Assembly: GCF_014174375.1 (NCBI RefSeq)
Contig: NZ_JABEQE010000001.1
Span: 1 to 64,000, forward strand
Source of the DNA: Gluconacetobacter asukensis
GTDB lineage: Bacteria; Pseudomonadota; Alphaproteobacteria; Acetobacterales; Acetobacteraceae
Direction of reading: 5' to 3'
DNA length: 64,000 bases
This document shows positions 5,357 through 54,892 of the stretch, piece after piece. The notes below the pieces were generated by a model. The model was not told the DNA's origin. It did not search any database and was given only the letters and a program-made list of their open reading frames with translations. The position numbers were made by a program, and so were the translations under genes. Within the stretch, counting starts at the first letter, position 1, and each line of letters starts with the position of its first letter.

Positions 5357-7309
5357 ATGACGGACACCGCCCTTTCCCAGACCGCGCCCGCCCTCAGCCA
5401 GCGGGAAATGACCCTGCGCGGTTTTATCCTCGGTGCCCTGATCACCATCGTCTTCACCGCCTCCAACATCTATCTGGGGCTCAAGATCGGCCTGACCGTC
5501 GCGTCGTCGATTCCGGCGGCCGTGATCTCCATGTCCGTATTGCGGGCGATGGGCGGCTCCACGATCCTCGAAAACAACATGGTCCAGACGCAGGCCTCGG
5601 CGGCCGGCACGCTGTCCTGCGTGTTCGTCTCGCTGCCCTGCATGATCATGATCGGCTACTGGCAGCATTTTCCCTATCTGGAGACGACGCTGATCACGCT
5701 GGCCGGCGGCATGACCGGCGTGCTGTTCACCGTTCCGCTGCGCCGGGCCATGGTGACCAACAGCGACCTGCCCTACCCGGAAGGCGTCGCGGCGGCCGAG
5801 ATCCTGAAGGCCGGGTCCGAAAGCGGCAGCCCCGAGAGCCTGCGCGCCCTGCTGACCGGCGGCATCCTGTCGGCCCTGGTCACGTTCGCCACCGGCGGGC
5901 TGCGCCTGCTGGCCGACGGCGCGGCGCTGACCGCGACATGGGGTGGCGCCATCTTCCGCGCCTCGACCGGCTTCTCGCTGGCCCTGCTGGGCGCGGGCTA
6001 CCTGGTCGGGATCGCCGGCGGCCTCGCCATGCTGATCGGCACCCTCATCGCCTGGGACGTCGCGGTCCCGATCCTCAGCGTCAGGTTGCCCAATCCCGGC
6101 CATCTTGCCGCCGGAGATTTCGCAACCCAGCTCTGGACGCACAAGGTGCGATTCCTCGGGGCCGGCACCATCGCCATTTCCGCCATCTGGACCCTGGCCC
6201 TGCTGGCGCGCCCGGTCGCGGCCGGCATCCGCGACATGATGCACGCCCATGGTTCGGACGACGAGGACGGCCGCATGCGCGACCTTACGCCGCGCACACT
6301 CCTGCTGCTGACCGGCCTGTGCCTGGCCATCCTGTTCGTCCTGTTCGTCGCCTTCCAGTATCCCTTCGCCCATGGCGGCGCCATCGTCACAGCGGCGCTG
6401 GCGGCGGTCGCATTCTGCGCCCTGTTCGGCTTCCTGGTCGCCGCCGCATGCGGCTACATGGCCGGCATCGTGGGGTCCTCCTCCTCGCCGCTGTCGGGCA
6501 TCGCGATCATCGCCATCGTCCTGGTCGCGTCCTTCATGCTGGTGCTGGAACCGCTGGGCGTCCTGCCCACCGAGATGTCGGCCAACAGCCGGCACCTGGC
6601 CGTGGCCTTCGCGCTCTATATCCTCTCGGCCATCGTCGCCTCCTCGGCCATTTCCAACGACAACCTCCAGGATCTCAAGACGGGCCAACTGGTCGGGGCC
6701 TCGCCCTGGCGGCAGCAGGTGGCGCTGCTGGTAGGCTGCGTCAGCGGCGCCATCGTCATTCCGCCGGTGCTGGAACTGCTGTACCAGGCCTATGGCTTCG
6801 TCGGCGCCATGCCCCATGCCGGCATGAATCCCGACCATGCGCTGCCGGCCCCGCAACCCGCCCTGCTGACCACCATCGCCATCGGCATCTTCCAGCACCA
6901 GCTCGACTGGACCATGATCCTGATCGGCATCGCACTGGGCGTCGTGCTCATCGTCACCGACCTGGGCCTGCGCCGCATCGGCGGGGCCCTGCCGCCTCTG
7001 GCGGTGGGTATCGGGCTGTATCTTCCTCCTGCGGTCAGCGTCACGCTGGCCATCGGCGCCATCATCGGCTGGGCCTGCTCGCGCGGCGCCCGCCAGGCCG
7101 AAGGCGGCATTGCCACCATGCTGGCCTCGGGCTTCATCGTGGGCGAAAGCCTGACGGGCGTGCTGCTGGCCGGTGTTGCCGGCGCCACCGGCCGCGACGA
7201 CACGCTGGCCATCCTCTCGCCCGACGCGACCACGCTGCCGTCGGTGCTGGGATTCCTGGTCTTTGCCGCCATATGTGCATGGTTCGGCCACCGCATCCGC
7301 AAGGCCTGA
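5357..7309 (+). CDS. OPT family oligopeptide transporter
   Basis: A 650-residue polytopic membrane protein with about 14-16 hydrophobic segments. It carries OPT-family hallmarks: SNIYLGLKIGLTVASSIPAA near the N-terminus, NNMVQTQASAAG around residue 75, and NSDLPYPEGVAAAEIL near 135. OPT proteins import small peptides or metal-chelate peptides by proton symport. A tiny ORF (MKTA, 5346-5360) overlaps the ATG as ATGA and could couple translation, but it may be chance. The stop codon is the first base-paired triplet of a structured repeat (7307-7459). Confidence 0.9.
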   Translation: MTDTALSQTAPALSQREMTLRGFILGALITIVFTASNIYLGLKIGLTVASSIPAAVISMSVLRAMGGSTILENNMVQTQASAAGTLSCVFVSLPCMIMIGYWQHFPYLETTLITLAGGMTGVLFTVPLRRAMVTNSDLPYPEGVAAAEILKAGSESGSPESLRALLTGGILSALVTFATGGLRLLADGAALTATWGGAIFRASTGFSLALLGAGYLVGIAGGLAMLIGTLIAWDVAVPILSVRLPNPGHLAAGDFATQLWTHKVRFLGAGTIAISAIWTLALLARPVAAGIRDMMHAHGSDDEDGRMRDLTPRTLLLLTGLCLAILFVLFVAFQYPFAHGGAIVTAALAAVAFCALFGFLVAAACGYMAGIVGSSSSPLSGIAIIAIVLVASFMLVLEPLGVLPTEMSANSRHLAVAFALYILSAIVASSAISNDNLQDLKTGQLVGASPWRQQVALLVGCVSGAIVIPPVLELLYQAYGFVGAMPHAGMNPDHALPAPQPALLTTIAIGIFQHQLDWTMILIGIALGVVLIVTDLGLRRIGGALPPLAVGIGLYLPPAVSVTLAIGAIIGWACSRGARQAEGGIATMLASGFIVGESLTGVLLAGVAGATGRDDTLAILSPDATTLPSVLGFLVFAAICAWFGHRIRKA

Positions 7310-7459
7310 TGGGACATGCGCGCTGGCGGCGATCCGGCGCGCGTTTTCTGCGCTCCGATGCTCACGGCCATCAAGGCCGCTCCGCTTCGGTGCTCGAAAA
7401 CACACGACGGCCGCGGCCCTGACGGGCCGCTCTCGCTCACCAGCCCACATGTCCCATCA
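7307..7459 (+). repeat. Dispersed structured element, copy 1
   Basis: A 153-base element starting at the OPT stop codon. A 12-bp perfect helix closes it: TGATGGGACATG (7307-7318) with CATGTCCCATCA (7448-7459). Inner helices are GTTTTC/GAAAAC (7343-7348, 7396-7401), a GGCC-ATCAA-GGCC hairpin, and GCGGCCC/GGGCCGC (7413-7419, 7424-7430). About 80% of the sequence matches copies 2-4, while closing-stem bases differ in compensating pairs. No ORF of its own is credible. Confidence 0.85.
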
Positions 7460-7503
7460 AGCCCTGAGAGCGTCGACACGAACGGCAAAAGGAGTTTCGG
7501 ACG

Positions 7504-8547: not shown

Positions 8548-10224
8548 ATGTCCATCCAATTCGCCGACCTCACTTTCTCCACCCCCTCCGCCGAAAGCCT
8601 CGATGCGGCCTTCGGCGCCGTATCCGCCCTGCTGGATGAAGGCGACCGCGCCCAGGCACTGGCCCGCTTCGACGCCGAACGCCGGGCCTATGACAGCTGG
8701 GCCTCGATGGTCGCCCTGCGCTTCTCCCAGGACACCACCAGCCAGCAGGCCCGCACCGATCGCGACCTGGCCGACCGCCTGACCCCGCACGTGACCGAGC
8801 TTGAAGTCGCCATCAAGCGCCGGCTGCTCGACGATCCCGACCGCACAGGCCTCGCCACCGCCATCGGCACCCACACCGTCCGCCTGTGGGAAACCGACAT
8901 CACCACCTTCGACCCGCGCATCCGCGAGGCCCTGGAAGAAGAAGCCCGGCTGGGCGCCGACTATACCGCCCTGCTGGCCGCCGCACGCGTGACGGTGCAG
9001 GGCCAGACGGTCAATCTGTCCGGCCTCGCCCCCTTCGCCGAACATCCAGACCGCGCCGTGCGCCACGAGGCCGAGAAGACGCGATGGGATTTCTTCGCCG
9101 CCAACGGGCCCGAACTTGACCGGATCTACGACCAGCTGGTCCAGGTCCGCCACGGCATGGCGCGCACACTGGGTTATGACAGCTACACCCCCCTGGGCTA
9201 CCGGCGGATGCGCCGCGTCGATTACGGGCCGGAAGAGGTCGCGCGCTTTCGCGACGACGTGCTGACCCATGTCGTGCCGCTGGTGAGCGCAATCATGGAA
9301 AACCGCCGCCTGACCATGAACTGGGACCGGCTGCATTTCTGGGACGAATCGCTGATCGACCCGCTGGGCAACCCGAAGCCGGCCGGCGACCACGACCTGC
9401 TGCTGGAACGCGCGCAGACCATGTTCGACCGCATGGGCGGCGATCTGGGCATGTTCTACCGCCAGATGGTCGAGGGCGGCTTCCTGGACCTGCGCAATCG
9501 CGAGGGCAAGGCCGGCGGCGGCTTCTGCACCGCCTTTCCCAGCATGGGAATGCCCTTCATCTTCGCCAATTTCAACGGCACCCAGCACGACATCACCGTC
9601 TTCACGCACGAGATGGGCCACGCCTACCAGAACTGGAAGAGCCGCGACCTGCCGGGGATCGACCTGCTCTGGCCGACCATGGACGCCGCCGAGATCCATT
9701 CGATGGCGCTGGAATTTCTCACCTGGCCGCAGATCGACCTGATGGTCGAGGACGGGCTGGCCGACCGCTTCCGCCGCATGCACCTGATCGGCTCGCTGAG
9801 CTTCCTGCCCTACGGCGTCTGCGTCGATCATTTCCAGCACGAGGTCTACGCCAATCCCGACATGACGGCCGCCGAACGCCACGAAACCTGGCAGCGTCTG
9901 GAAAAGCTGTACCTGCCCTGGCGCGATTACGGCGACCTGTCATGGCCCGCCGGTGGCGGCCGCTGGCAGGCCCAGGGCCATATCTACCGCTCGCCCTTCT
10001 ATTATATCGACTACACGCTGGCCCTGTGCTGCGCGATGCAGTTCTGGCTGCACAGCCGGGCCGACCAGACAGGCGCGATGGCAATCTATGCCGATCTCTG
10101 CGCGCTGGGCGGCTCGCAGCCCTTCACCGGCCTGGTCGACGCCGCCGGGCTGATCAGCCCCTTCAAACCCGGCACCCTGGCCGACATCGTGCAGGAGGCC
10201 GACCGCTTCCTGCACACGCGCTAA
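8548..10224 (+). CDS. M3 family oligoendopeptidase (PepF-like)
   Basis: A 558-residue cytoplasmic zinc metallopeptidase that degrades short peptides. The zinc motif HEMGH is at His354-His358, with the third ligand Glu about 26 residues later (AAEIHSMALEFL). The length and the C-terminal IYRSPFYYIDYTLALCCAMQFW match PepF-type oligoendopeptidases. I chose the ATG at 8548; a GTG at 8512 would add 12 residues without a ribosome-binding site. Its position after an OPT transporter suggests uptake followed by hydrolysis of peptides. The TAA stop is part of the closing helix of a short structured repeat. Confidence 0.92.
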   Translation: MSIQFADLTFSTPSAESLDAAFGAVSALLDEGDRAQALARFDAERRAYDSWASMVALRFSQDTTSQQARTDRDLADRLTPHVTELEVAIKRRLLDDPDRTGLATAIGTHTVRLWETDITTFDPRIREALEEEARLGADYTALLAAARVTVQGQTVNLSGLAPFAEHPDRAVRHEAEKTRWDFFAANGPELDRIYDQLVQVRHGMARTLGYDSYTPLGYRRMRRVDYGPEEVARFRDDVLTHVVPLVSAIMENRRLTMNWDRLHFWDESLIDPLGNPKPAGDHDLLLERAQTMFDRMGGDLGMFYRQMVEGGFLDLRNREGKAGGGFCTAFPSMGMPFIFANFNGTQHDITVFTHEMGHAYQNWKSRDLPGIDLLWPTMDAAEIHSMALEFLTWPQIDLMVEDGLADRFRRMHLIGSLSFLPYGVCVDHFQHEVYANPDMTAAERHETWQRLEKLYLPWRDYGDLSWPAGGGRWQAQGHIYRSPFYYIDYTLALCCAMQFWLHSRADQTGAMAIYADLCALGGSQPFTGLVDAAGLISPFKPGTLADIVQEADRFLHTR

Positions 10225-10312
10225 AGGCTGCTTGCAAAGTTACCCTGCCGGCGATCCGGCGTGCCGCTTTGCGGCACTCTCACTCGGCAGGCCGACTTTT
10301 CAAACAGCCTTT
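10223..10312 (+). repeat. Short form of the dispersed structured element
   Basis: A 90-base element beginning within the M3 peptidase stop codon. The closing helix is AAAGGCTG (10223-10230) with CAGCCTTT (10305-10312). Inside are AAAGT/ACTTT, CTGCCG/CGGCAG and a terminal hairpin GTGCCGC-TTT-GCGGCAC. GGCGATCCGGCG and GCGGCACTCTC match the full copies, but the long central arm is absent. It looks like a deletion derivative or a minimal member of the same family. Confidence 0.6.
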
Positions 10313-14343: not shown

Positions 14344-14919
14344 ATGAGCATCCGAATCGATCGCATCGTCACCCGCGGCGGCGATGGCGGGCAGACCTCG
14401 CTGGGCGACGGAACGCGGGTGGACAAATCCTGCGCGCGGATCGAGGCCCTGGGCGCGGTGGACGAGGCCAATGCCACGATCGGCGTCCTGCGGCTGCATG
14501 TGCCGGCCTCCTCGCCCGATGCCGCCTGCCTGGCGCGCATCCAGTCCCTGCTGTTCGATATCGGCGGCATCCTGTGCGTGCCGGAATCCGGACCGGCCGA
14601 TACCGACAATTTTCGCGGCGGCGACGCGGCGGTCGCGTTTCTCGAACAGGCGACGGAACGGCTGCGCGCCTGCCAGGCGCCCCTGCGCAGTTTCGTGCTG
14701 CCAGCCGGCAGTCCGGGCGCCGCCCACGCCCATCTGGCCCGCACGGTGGCCCGCCGGGCAGAACGCCAGGTCGTGACGCTACGCCATGCCGAACCCGTCA
14801 GCGCGTCCGTCCTGCGCTGCCTGAACCGGCTGTCCGATTATCTGTTCGTGCTGGCCCGGCACCTGAACAATGACGGGCAGGACGACGTACTGTGGCATCC
14901 CGGCAGCCCGGATATCTGA
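14344..14919 (+). CDS. ATP:cob(I)alamin adenosyltransferase, PduO type
   Basis: A 191-residue trimeric enzyme that makes adenosylcobalamin. The N-terminal ATP-binding signature TRGGDGGQTSLGDG (9-22), the RIEALGAVDEANA segment and the C-terminal RRAERQVV and CLNRLSDYLFVLAR motifs are all present. Its cofactor product would serve B12-dependent enzymes elsewhere in the genome. The stop codon lies at the edge of structured repeat copy 2. Confidence 0.93.
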   Translation: MSIRIDRIVTRGGDGGQTSLGDGTRVDKSCARIEALGAVDEANATIGVLRLHVPASSPDAACLARIQSLLFDIGGILCVPESGPADTDNFRGGDAAVAFLEQATERLRACQAPLRSFVLPAGSPGAAHAHLARTVARRAERQVVTLRHAEPVSASVLRCLNRLSDYLFVLARHLNNDGQDDVLWHPGSPDI

Positions 14920-15082
14920 GAGCCCGACCGAAAATGCGCGCTGGCAGCGATCCAGCGCGTGTTGCCTGCGCTTCGGTGCTCATGGCCATCAAGGCCACTC
15001 CGCTCCGATGCTCGGAAACACACGCCGGGCGCGGCCCCTTGGGCCGCTCTCGCTTGCCAGCCCACATTTTCGGTCAGGCTCT
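14919..15082 (+). repeat. Dispersed structured element, copy 2
   Basis: A 164-base element that starts at the pduO stop. The closing helix is long: AGAGCC plus GACCGAAAATG (14919-14936) against CATTTTCGGTC plus GGCTCT (15065-15082) with one mismatch. The second helix is GCTGGCA/TGCCAGC (14940-14946, 15055-15061). The arm motifs are TCGG (14973-14976) and CCGA (15005-15008), reversed relative to copies 1 and 4. The last hairpin is GCGGCCC-CTT-GGGCCGC. Confidence 0.85.
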
Positions 15083-39076: not shown

Positions 39077-39096
39077 CCTGTTCCGCCCCGCACGCC

Positions 39097-39150
39097 TTTC
39101 CAGACAGACTTCCTCATTCCGAGCCTGACTGGAAATGCGCGCAGGCAGCC
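39097..39150 (+). repeat. Hairpin after the HNH gene with a fragment of the structured element
   Basis: TTTCCAGACAG (39097-39107) pairs with CTGACTGGAAA (39125-39135) with one A-A mismatch. The right arm continues into GAAATGCGCGC and GGCAGCC, matching the left end of structured-element copies 2 and 4. The rest of the element is absent; the chemoreceptor gene end follows directly at 39153. Confidence 0.5.
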
Positions 39151-39152
39151 CG

Positions 39153-42873: not shown

Positions 42874-42885
42874 GAGGCGGCTGCA

Positions 42886-43036
42886 AAAGCCCCGCTGGCG
42901 GCGGCCTGACGGCGGTTTCCTGCGCTTCGGTGCTCACGGCCCGTAAGGCCGCTCCGCTCCGATGCTCGGAAACACACGCCGGGCGCGGCCCTGCGGGCCG
43001 CTCTCGCTCACCAGCCCACATTTCCAGGCAGGCTTT
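42886..43036 (+). repeat. Dispersed structured element, copy 3
   Basis: About 151 bases, beginning 13 bases after the SelW-like gene. Inner helices are kept: GCTGG/CCAGC (42894-42898, 43011-43015), GTTTCC/GGAAAC, TCGG/CCGA (42927-42930, 42959-42962), GGCC-CGTAA-GGCC and GCGGCCC-TGC-GGGCCGC. The closing helix has degenerated: only AAAGCC/GGCTTT (42886-42891, 43031-43036) can pair, while CATTTCCAGGCA has lost its left partner. Confidence 0.8.
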
Positions 43037-52202: not shown

Positions 52203-52419
52203 TTTTTCGACGGCTCCGATTTTTGTCGATTCAGCATAAATCTTTTGTCCCGTTTTTGATAGAAAAAATCACGGAAACGGCATAGACTTCCCACATCCCC
52301 ATGAATATTTATCCACAAAACGACCATGTAAACAATCAACAAAAGAACAAGTAAAATATTTACAGACGCCACACGGCTCCCCTTACTTGATTCTTGCTTC
52401 AAGAGGAACCATTCGGAAA

Positions 52420-52869
52420 ATGACGCGGGTACACGGCGAAAATTCCAGCGATCTGGCACAGCAGCTTATTGGCACATGGGAGCTTGTTTCCTACCAGGTC
52501 GAGGACAAGAAAAGCGGCGAAATGATCGAGGCCATGGGCGATTGCCCGCGCGGACGGGTCATTTTTACCGCGGATGGCTGGGTCGCCTTCAACCTGGAAG
52601 GCAGCAGCCGCCAGCCCGCCGTGACGGACTGGGACCGCGCGCAGCTCATGAAAACCCTCGTCGCCTATATCGGCCGCTACCGGATCGAGCACGATCAATG
52701 GATCACGCGCGTCGAGACGGCCTGGGCCCCCGAATGGGTGGGCACGGAACAACGGCGGACCGTCACCGTGGACGGCGCCCATGCCACCGTCATCACGCCC
52801 TGGCGCGAAATGCCCAACTGGGCCGATCGCGGTCCCTCCCGCAGCCTCATCCGCTTCCGGCGAGCATGA
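52420..52869 (+). CDS. Lipocalin-like domain protein
   Basis: 149 residues of the lipocalin-like_1/5 type: the start motif LIGTWELVSYQVEDKKSGE is the classic lipocalin-fold G-x-W signature, followed by GRVIFTADGWVAFNL and a C-terminal RTVTVDGAHATVITPW. There is no signal peptide. Members are found near catabolic or tailoring enzymes, but function is generally unknown. It diverges from the LysR regulator, with AAGAGGAA upstream of the ATG at 52420. Repeat copy 4 begins within its stop codon. Confidence 0.8.
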   Translation: MTRVHGENSSDLAQQLIGTWELVSYQVEDKKSGEMIEAMGDCPRGRVIFTADGWVAFNLEGSSRQPAVTDWDRAQLMKTLVAYIGRYRIEHDQWITRVETAWAPEWVGTEQRRTVTVDGAHATVITPWREMPNWADRGPSRSLIRFRRA

Positions 52870-53023
52870 CCGGAAATGCGCGCTGGTGGCGATCCGACGC
52901 GCGTTTCCTGCGCTCCGATGCTCACGGCCATATAGGCCGCTCCGCTTCGGTGCTCGGAAACACACGACGGCCGTGCCGCTGCGCGGCACTCTCGCTCACC
53001 AGCCCACATTTCCGGTCACGCTC
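52862..53023 (+). repeat. Dispersed structured element, copy 4 (best preserved)
   Basis: 162 bases starting in the lipocalin-like stop region. Helices: GAGC/GCTC (52862-52865, 53020-53023), TGACCGGAAATG/CATTTCCGGTCA (52867-52878, 53007-53018), GCTGGTG/CACCAGC (52882-52888, 52997-53003), GTTTCC/GGAAAC (52903-52908, 52956-52961), CCGA/TCGG (52915-52918, 52947-52950), hairpin GGCC-ATATA-GGCC (52926-52938) and hairpin GTGCCGC-TGC-GCGGCAC (52973-52989). Confidence 0.9.
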
Positions 53024-53254
53024 TGCAATTACGGGGCGTGCACATGCGCATTCCGGAGATCTGACGGCAGGAATTGCGGATTGAGCCTGCGCCGCGAATC
53101 TGTTCGGATGCCCCATCCGGACGGATTTCGCTGCGGGGAATGTCCTCACATCGTGACGGACCTGATCATGATTTGAATAGTCTCAGGCCTTTCCTCCCCT
53201 GTTCTTTCCGGACAACGATGCATGACAGGTTCAGCCCTGTCCGGAGATGATCAT
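53024..53254. other. Spacer before acetolactate synthase
   Basis: About 230 bases without a gene. It presumably contains the acetolactate synthase promoter. I see no riboswitch-like or leader-peptide-like structure with branched-chain codons, consistent with a catabolic rather than an anabolic enzyme. Confidence 0.4.
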
Positions 53255-54892
53255 ATGACAAAGGCATCCGACCTCCTCGTCGCAGCCCTTGAAAATGAGG
53301 GCGTCGATCGGATTTTCGGCATTCCCGGCGAAGAGAATCTCGATATCGTCGAATCCCTCCGCACCTCCTCGATCAAGCTGACGATCACCCGCCACGAACA
53401 GGCCGCCGCCTTCATGGCCGCGACCCATGGCCGCCTCACGGGCCGGCCGGGCGTGTGCCTCGCAACGCTCGGCCCCGGCGCGCTCAATCTCGCGACCGGC
53501 GCCGCCTACGCCCATCTGGGCGCAATGCCGATGGTGATGCTGACCGGGCAGAAGGCAATCCTCTCCGAACGCCAGGCCCGCTTCCAGATCGTCGATGTCG
53601 TGGCGACGATGCGCCCGCTGACCAAGATGGCCCGGCAGATCGTCTCCGCCCACATGATCCCCACCCTGATCCGCGACGCCTTCCGCGTGGCGGCCGAAGA
53701 ACGCCCCGGCCCGGTCCATCTCGAACTGCCCGAAGACATCGCGCGCGAGGAATGCGGCAACCCGGCGCTGATCCGCCCGCACGCGATCGACGCACCCGTC
53801 GCCAGTGACGCGGCGATCCGCATCGCGGCCGACCTGCTGCGCTCCGCCCGGCGCCCCCTGGTCATGCTGGGTGCGGCGGCATCCCGCCCGCGCCTGGCCG
53901 GCAAGCTGCATGAATTCTTCTCGCGCACGCGCCTGCCCTATTTCACGACGCAGATGGGCAAGGGCGCGGTGGGCGGATGCAGCGATCTCTATATGGGCAC
54001 GGCCGCCCTCAGCGAGCGCGATTACGTCCACGAGGCCATCGAACGCGCGGACCTGATCCTGACGATCGGCCACGACACCGCCGAAAAGCCTCCCTTCATC
54101 ATGGGCACCAACGGGCCGGACGTCGTGCATTTCGGCTACGAGCCCGCCCATGTCGAGCAGGTCTATTTCCCGCAGACCGAAATCATCGGCGATATCGGCG
54201 CCTCCCTGTCCCGCCTGGCCGACCAGGTCGAAGGCCGCCTTGCCAATGCCGACGCCCTCCTGGGCCTGCGCGACGGCATCCTCGACCATATCCTGGAAGG
54301 CTCCACCGACAATCGCTGGACACCGCAGCGCGTCGTCGCCGATATCCGCAAGGTGATGCCGCAGGACGGTATCGTGGCGCTGGATAACGGCATGTACAAG
54401 ATCTGGTTCGCGCGGAACTACCGCACCAGCGTCGCCAACACGCTCCTGCTGGACAATGCCCTGGCCACCATGGGTGCCGGCCTGCCATCGGCCATCGCGG
54501 CTGCCATCCTCTACCCCGACCGGCGCGTGCTGGCCGTCTCGGGCGATGGCGGGTTCATGATGAACAGCCAGGAAATCGAAACCGCCGTCCGCCTCAAGCT
54601 CAATCTCGTCTCCCTGATCATCGATGACGGCGCCTTCGGCATGATCCGCTGGAAACAGGCGGTCGATCATTTCCCCGATTACGGCATGACATTCGGCAAC
54701 CCCGATTTCGTCAAATATGCCGAATCCTACGGCGCCAAGGGCCATTTCGTCGAAAAGATCGAGGATTTCGAAGCAACTCTCGAACGCGCCTTCGCCGAGG
54801 GCGGCGTGCAGATCATCGCCATCCCGATCGATTATGCCGACAATATCCGCGTGCTGATCGACGAATTGAGCAAGCGCATCCCCGTCACCTGA
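53255..54892 (+). CDS. Acetolactate synthase, catabolic type
   Basis: 545 residues, TPP-dependent. The activating Glu is in TRHEQAAAFMAA, the TPP-Mg motif is GDGGFMMNSQEIETAVRLKLN given as residues about 430-450, and FGMIRWKQ follows. Length and the lack of a regulatory subunit gene next to it suggest the AlsS/BudB-like or the large-subunit-only type. It condenses two pyruvates to 2-acetolactate. A lactate dehydrogenase gene lies downstream on the same strand, giving a lactate to pyruvate to acetolactate route. An acetolactate decarboxylase is not in the window. Confidence 0.9.
   Translation: MTKASDLLVAALENEGVDRIFGIPGEENLDIVESLRTSSIKLTITRHEQAAAFMAATHGRLTGRPGVCLATLGPGALNLATGAAYAHLGAMPMVMLTGQKAILSERQARFQIVDVVATMRPLTKMARQIVSAHMIPTLIRDAFRVAAEERPGPVHLELPEDIAREECGNPALIRPHAIDAPVASDAAIRIAADLLRSARRPLVMLGAAASRPRLAGKLHEFFSRTRLPYFTTQMGKGAVGGCSDLYMGTAALSERDYVHEAIERADLILTIGHDTAEKPPFIMGTNGPDVVHFGYEPAHVEQVYFPQTEIIGDIGASLSRLADQVEGRLANADALLGLRDGILDHILEGSTDNRWTPQRVVADIRKVMPQDGIVALDNGMYKIWFARNYRTSVANTLLLDNALATMGAGLPSAIAAAILYPDRRVLAVSGDGGFMMNSQEIETAVRLKLNLVSLIIDDGAFGMIRWKQAVDHFPDYGMTFGNPDFVKYAESYGAKGHFVEKIEDFEATLERAFAEGGVQIIAIPIDYADNIRVLIDELSKRIPVT

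What the first reader, a model, noticed from the sequence alone, without database searches (positions are those of the whole stretch)
52862..53023. A dispersed, covarying structured element of about 150 bases
Four full copies (7307-7459, 14919-15082, 42886-43036, 52862-53023) and a short form (10223-10312) were seen. Helix partners change together between copies. The closing stem is TGATGGGACATG/CATGTCCCATCA in copy 1, GACCGAAAATG/CATTTTCGGTC in copy 2 and TGACCGGAAATG/CATTTCCGGTCA in copy 4. The second stem is GCTGGCA/TGCCAGC in copy 2 but GCTGGTG/CACCAGC in copy 4. The third is GTTTTC/GAAAAC in copy 1 but GTTTCC/GGAAAC in copies 3 and 4. The last hairpin is GCGGCCC/GGGCCGC in copies 1-3 but GTGCCGC/GCGGCAC in copy 4. 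All stand on the plus strand right behind the stop codon of a plus-strand gene. That is strong evidence for selection on structure: a 3' UTR RNA element, a terminator-like module or a MITE. I do not know a name for it.
Basis: seen in the sequence. Interest (0 to 1): 0.88.

Follow-up and report, generated by a model that had tools for sequence, protein, structure and literature searches.

The report
Stop-codon MITE carrying structured RNA
In vinegar-type bacteria a small jumping DNA element with a conserved folded RNA sits, over a hundred times in one genome, mostly at the stop codons of genes and mostly facing the same way, and its RNA fold belongs to the strand opposite to the gene.

Summary
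The window lies in a Gluconacetobacter genome (Acetobacteraceae). A covariance model finds at least 137 copies there; 14 of 14 genus genomes and 23 of 120 family genomes have it. Of 116 first copies with an upstream gene, 98 are in sense and 91 lie within -14..+15 nt of its stop (random TNA sites 8%). Copies from 12 other genera behave alike (39 of 49). The ends match inverted repeats of IS5-family insertion sequences, with 3-bp TNA duplications and two near-clean empty sites where the stop TGA is duplicated: a MITE. Full-length ISs with such ends lie that near a stop in 4 of 20 cases. Covariation holds across genera, but the RNA-like strand is the one OPPOSITE the gene: about 16 kcal/mol more stable, nearly three times the G-U pairs, purine-rich loops, G-C/U-G exchanges. 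So 'MITE' and 'selected structure' hold; 'plus-strand 3' UTR terminator' does not. Function is unproven: no U-tract, no promoter match inside the copy scanned, no RNA data.

The parts
52862..53023 (-). copy 4, full element; RNA-like strand is minus; lies behind the plus-strand lipocalin-like gene (stop TGA 52867-52869 inside the first arm)
52862..52878 (+). copy 4 left terminal inverted repeat (GAGCATGACCGGAAATG)
53007..53023 (+). copy 4 right terminal inverted repeat (CATTTCCGGTCACGCTC)
52913..52955 (-). conserved terminal hairpin on the RNA-like strand, GAGCACCGAAGCGGAGCGGCC..GGCCGTGAGCATCGGAG
52973..52989 (-). second hairpin of the three-way junction (GTGCCGC/GCGGCAC), covarying
7302..7464 (-). 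copy 1, behind an OPT-type transporter gene
14920..15081 (-). copy 2, behind a cobalamin adenosyltransferase gene; TGA on both sides; the orthologous site in G001 is empty with one TGA (shown against the G004 copy)
42875..43035 (-). copy 3, chimera with mostly unpaired outer arms, behind an Rdx-family gene
10224..10311 (-). short form without the long third helix, behind a peptidase M3 gene (not among the 137)
52420..52869 (+). lipocalin-like gene upstream of copy 4 (home-made gene call; ORF list 52387-52869)

Best explanation
A family of MITEs moved in trans by IS5-family transposases. Shown: ends such as GAG[C/G]CTG.., 3-bp TNA duplications, more than 100 copies in the own genome, recombination between copies. 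Shown: the inside is a conserved three-way-junction fold whose RNA signature is on the strand opposite to the adjacent gene. Shown: most copies stand at the stop codon in one orientation. Inferred: insertion at a TNA such as TGA duplicates the stop and leaves the protein intact, and the copy is kept, or aimed, so that RNA polymerase coming from the far side makes the folded RNA just before it would run antisense into the gene; the fold then stops, processes or marks that antisense transcript. The last step is the weakest (about 0.3).
For: IS ends and element ends share GAGCCTGTTTGGAAA (15 bp), with an IS5-family transposase in those ISs. Flanking 3-mers agree in 19 of 101 copies against 10.2 +/- 2.4 shuffled, 1 of 2000. 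Filled/empty pairs: cob gene and the 81-kb site, where the duplicated TCA is the stop of the convergent gene. Stop anchoring 91 of 116, 45 of them exactly behind the stop, against 8.1% null, and in other genera. Strand: 90 of 95 sense-placed full copies and 47 of 49 from other genera fold better on the opposite strand; 373 stretches behind other stops show no difference. G-U pairs 5.7 against 2.0 per fold, more on the opposite strand in 100 of 113 copies, fewer in 6. Unpaired bases A 0.44, G 0.31. Pairs 65:130 GC 19/UG 11, 66:129 UG 16/GC 14, 89:106 GU 32/32.
Against: Enrichment between convergent genes is unclear: 38 of 91 against 110 of 399 of all gene ends (p 0.01), but 38 of 84 against 110 of 234 when co-directional gaps under 40 nt are left out (p 0.8); in the other cases no source of transcripts from the far side is known. 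The one promoter match near copy 4 lies outside it on the plus strand; inside it the scan gives one weak terminator-like site on the minus strand (1 against 0.3 in shuffles). In the outer arms of own copies A-C and G-U cells do not differ (68 against 52, p 0.17), so those arms may be kept alike at DNA level. In the 62 copies whose 5' flank is not TGA the duplication is weak (4 against 1.6 +/- 1.2, 118 of 2000). A-C mismatches in the sense mRNA could themselves be selected, for instance to escape RNase III, which would mimic the strand bias. No RNA data.
Confidence: 0.6

Rival explanations
1. Sense-strand 3' UTR device of the upstream gene: a giant hairpin that ends or protects its mRNA, recruited from a MITE.
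For: Orientation and distance are set by the upstream gene; the sense fold is still very stable (-94.5 mean) and its pairs covary (95.2% of cells).
Against: G-U pairs, loop composition and stability all point to the other strand; no U-tract, terminators not replaced.
Confidence: 0.2
2. Pure DNA parasite: a MITE with no RNA role; arms kept alike by template switching or gene conversion; place and orientation due to unknown targeting.
For: MITE features; concerted multi-base arm changes and chimeras between close species; arm identity 0.64 against 0.84 for core unpaired columns, correlation with core -0.13.
Against: Strand-asymmetric wobble pairs and purine loops repeated in other genera with different stems; ISs with the same kind of ends are much less stop-anchored (4 of 20 against 91 of 116, p 8e-7).
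Confidence: 0.17
3. REP/BIME-type elements moved by a RAYT (Y1 transposase).
For: Palindromic, more than 100 copies, 3' of genes.
Against: No PF01797 match in any of 14 genus genomes, while 5 of 14 control genomes ring; ends and duplications are of IS5 type.
Confidence: 0.03

Closest known systems
ERIC, Correia/NEMIS and other bacterial MITEs (reviews PMC10969869 and PMC2229807, passages read)
   Same: Small, inverted ends, target duplication, transcripts fold into long stems; for ERIC at gene 3' ends orientation matters for mRNA stability
   Different: Other sequence; here most copies are fixed at the stop codon in one orientation, and the fold signature is on the strand opposite the gene
RUP of Streptococcus pneumoniae (PMC2229807, passages)
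   Same: Small element whose ends are related to those of a known IS
   Different: Other IS (IS630-Spn1); the passages read report no further structure or function signature for RUP
REP/BIME with RAYT (abstract start of PMC2817692 in the search listing only)
   Same: High-copy intergenic palindromes
   Different: No RAYT found in the 14 genus genomes; IS5-type ends
IS5-family ISs with TNA targets (group names IS1031/IS427 recalled, from no call)
   Same: Ends and 3-bp TNA duplication
   Different: No transposase in the element; its interior gave no convincing match to the 8 IS bodies compared

Membership tests
MITE of the IS5 family | terminal inverted repeats shared with an IS5-family IS | tested here: met
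   15 bp shared with an 883-bp IS in genome G003, 14 of 17 with one end of two ISs of the own genome; transposase NF033580, PF01609, PF13340
MITE of the IS5 family | 3-bp TNA target duplication | tested here: met
   19 of 101 against 10.2 shuffled; weaker outside TGA flanks (4 of 62 against 1.6); two near-clean empty sites
MITE of the IS5 family | no transposase of its own, short, many copies | tested here: met
   about 162 bp, at least 137 copies; at most 54 codons, two of six frames of copy 4 without a stop
MITE of the IS5 family | moved in trans by the IS transposase | not testable with these tools
   needs a transposition assay
Structured RNA | pair-preserving changes in several helices beyond controls | tested here: met
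   33 of 47 pairs, 32 sequences from 11 genera, 0 of 500 shuffles, slides 30-49% paired; R-scape not available
Structured RNA | it is transcribed | not testable with these tools
   no RNA-seq
Intrinsic terminator | U-tract behind the stem | tested here: not met
   mean 1.66 T in the 8 nt behind the element on the gene strand
REP/RAYT | a RAYT in the genome | tested here: not met
   0 of 14 genomes
Any Rfam family | match at the gathering score | tested here: not met
   window at gathering scores; four loci at E up to 5, no match on a copy

The most novel reading that the evidence does not exclude
A mobile structured RNA: a MITE whose payload is a conserved RNA made from the strand opposite to the host gene, with a dedicated mechanism, tied to translation stops or to transcription, that places it exactly at stop codons in one orientation, so that many genes of a genome carry the same antisense-side RNA cap.
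Probability: 0.25. Interest if true: 0.9.

Novelty: new variant of a known kind. Interest (0 to 1): 0.72.

Why it matters
MITEs are usually seen as debris. A MITE with an RNA-level conserved core, one strand, one main orientation and a fixed distance to the stop codon in many genera of a family makes a testable case of a mobile element that sets the 3' boundary of bacterial genes, or of insertion guided by translation stops. It also shows that covariation in an inverted repeat must be read strand by strand.

Tried and rejected
Rejected: RAYT/REP. Canonical terminator, and replacement of terminators. Known Rfam RNA. Insertion into pre-existing terminator loops: ordinary 3' hairpins of this genome look different and the two near-clean empty sites hold no such hairpin; but at the lipocalin site two relatives (L058, L059) have only a simple hairpin that begins like the element, and whether it is a remnant or a precursor is open. 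Target dictated by a TGA sequence alone: stop codons at the element are used as in the background (66/14/11 against 359/70/58). Origin of the core from an IS interior: best E 0.008 over 31 bases, the rest 0.08 or weaker, 4 cores against 8 IS bodies. Spread of the terminal hairpin beyond the family: no match in 384 of 385 sampled Alphaproteobacteria, the one match being the own genome; only 4 other Acetobacteraceae were in that sample and the pattern was exact. A TIR pattern typed for one search found nothing. In print: searches listed no description of this element; of the papers only their listings and the passages were seen (the terms asked do not occur).

Weak points: gene calls are from a home-made ORF scorer, not an annotation. 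137 is a lower bound (150 of 7229 candidates scored; the short form of the window is not among them). Copies share ancestry, so p-values over copies are too small. The null for place used TNA sites of 164 kb of one contig only. The distant copies were chosen among the best-scoring ones, and 49 of 73 model matches were used: repeats of the same place, reverse-strand matches and partial or second copies were dropped; the cross-genus alignment used 26 of these 49, leaving out most shorter ones, plus 6 own copies. Coding stretches (150) fold 4 kcal/mol better on the gene strand, so strand differences as such occur, though in the other direction.

Full report
The element. A covariance model from 41 copies finds 137 matches in the own genome at E <= 0.01, a lower bound because 150 of 7229 candidates were scored. 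14 of 14 genomes of the genus have it and 23 of 120 sampled genomes of the family, own included. Tandem copies occur; the seven second copies in the alignment lack a fully pairing left arm.

Place. I fetched the surroundings of all 137 matches and called genes with an ORF scorer. Of 119 first or only copies, 116 have an upstream gene on the stretch; in 98 it runs in the same direction and in 18 in the other. Of the 98, 91 start within -14..+15 nt of the stop codon, 45 exactly behind it. Between co-directional genes 56 copies are in sense and 11 reversed (p 2e-8). Stop codon use is that of the background. Random non-coding TNA sites in 164 kb, both orientations, give 117 of 1448 (8.1%) sense and adjacent. 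In 12 other genera, 42 of 49 copies are in sense and 39 also adjacent. Where relatives lack the element, as behind the OPT, M3 and cob genes, the gene ends at the corresponding place, so there the element does not merely truncate genes.

Mobility. Behind the cob gene G004 reads TGA-element-TGA and G001 one TGA, with a right flank that is only 74% alike. At the 81-kb site G007 has a second, reversed element between two TCA where the own genome has one TCA, which is the stop codon of the convergent gene; loss in the own genome is not excluded. Flanking 3-mers agree in 19 of 101 copies, 10.2 +/- 2.4 expected from shuffles, 1 of 2000; in the 62 copies without a 5' TGA the excess is weak (4 against 1.6, 118 of 2000). 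ISs of the IS5 family (NF033580; PF01609, PF13340) in the genus have ends of the same kind: GAGCCTGTTTGGAAAGTC and GAGCCCGATCCGAAAGTT, mostly with TNA duplications, in G003, and in the own genome one end each reading GAGCCTGTTTTAGAATG and CTGTCTGACCGGAAATG. The element is therefore a MITE. Of 20 such full-length ISs in G003, 4 lie within -15..+20 of a stop counting either end, 2 of them directly at it, against 91 of 116 elements (p 8e-7).

Covariation and strand. Pairing is strongly supported in the genus and across genera: 33 of 47 pairs with both-side changes, 96.5% of cells paired, 0 of 500 shuffles (32 sequences from 11 genera). The gene strand gives a similar but poorer picture (29 of 43 pairs, 95.2%; further pair types reached by 52 of 500 shuffles), as Watson-Crick pairs are shared. 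The opposite strand folds better: own sense-placed copies -94.5 against -110.6 (95 copies, 90 better on the other strand), other genera -91.0 against -108.3 (47 of 49); 373 control stretches behind stops show -67.0 against -66.2, and 150 coding stretches -68.9 against -64.8. With the shared terminal hairpin cut out the difference stays (73 of 75 and 29 of 29 copies in which the hairpin could be cut, of 113 and 49). Unpaired bases on that strand are A 0.44, G 0.31, on the gene strand C 0.38, T 0.33. Reversed copies carry the same element-strand bias (16 of 16), so it belongs to the element and not to local transcription. In the cross-genus alignment the opposite strand has G-C/U-G exchanges at 65:130 and 66:129 and an invariant G-U at 89:106; the gene-strand consensus structure has none of these three. 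Consensus energies are -86.5 and -67.1. Against this: in the outer arms of own copies A-C and G-U cells do not differ significantly (68 and 52, p 0.17), though they do in other genera (45 and 18). The outer arms may thus be kept alike partly at DNA level; between close species they can change by several bases on both arms at once, and chimeras occur (the 7.3-kb, 42.9-kb and 149-kb sites).

Function. No U-tract follows and canonical terminators behind it are as frequent as elsewhere. In 52800-53300 the only promoter match lies outside the element on the plus strand, and one weak terminator-like site lies inside it on the minus strand. Whether copies are enriched between convergent genes depends on how gaps are counted (38 of 91 against 110 of 399, p 0.01; 38 of 84 against 110 of 234, p 0.8). 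I therefore hold the MITE nature and the opposite-strand RNA fold as well supported, and a role in stopping or marking transcription that comes from the far side as the most likely but weakly supported use. A sense-strand 3' UTR role and a purely DNA-level parasite remain open.

Noticed in passing
window 42875-43035: Copy 3 is a chimera: its left arm belongs to subtype B and its right arm to subtype A, while G. tumulicola has the reverse combination and G. aggeris a short B-B form at the same site.
   Followed up: partly
window 39077-39152: Between two convergent genes lies what looks like a remnant with two element arms back to back; the relative G001 has a fuller element there.
   Followed up: no
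L031, L027, L019, L014, L016, L023: Tandem copies where core plus right arm are repeated and the left arm is single or degraded; one left arm could pair with either right arm.
   Followed up: no
own genome contigs C13, C14, C21, C24: Copies lie within about 250 bases of these contig ends, so the element probably breaks the assembly and is undercounted.
   Followed up: no
G003 genome, L261-L280: Two high-copy IS5-family ISs of 883 and 930 bp with mostly TNA duplications, one inserted beside the other (L270).
   Followed up: partly
window 52913-52955 and homologues: The terminal hairpin repeats one motif (like GAGCACCGGAGCG) on both sides of its stem and is the most conserved part across genera; two pairs of it exchange C-G/U-A and G-C/A-U between copies.
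   Followed up: partly
L058, L059 (lipocalin site of two relatives): Only a simple hairpin (GGAAATGCGCAC..GTGCGC) stands where the own genome has the full element; remnant or precursor unknown.
   Followed up: no
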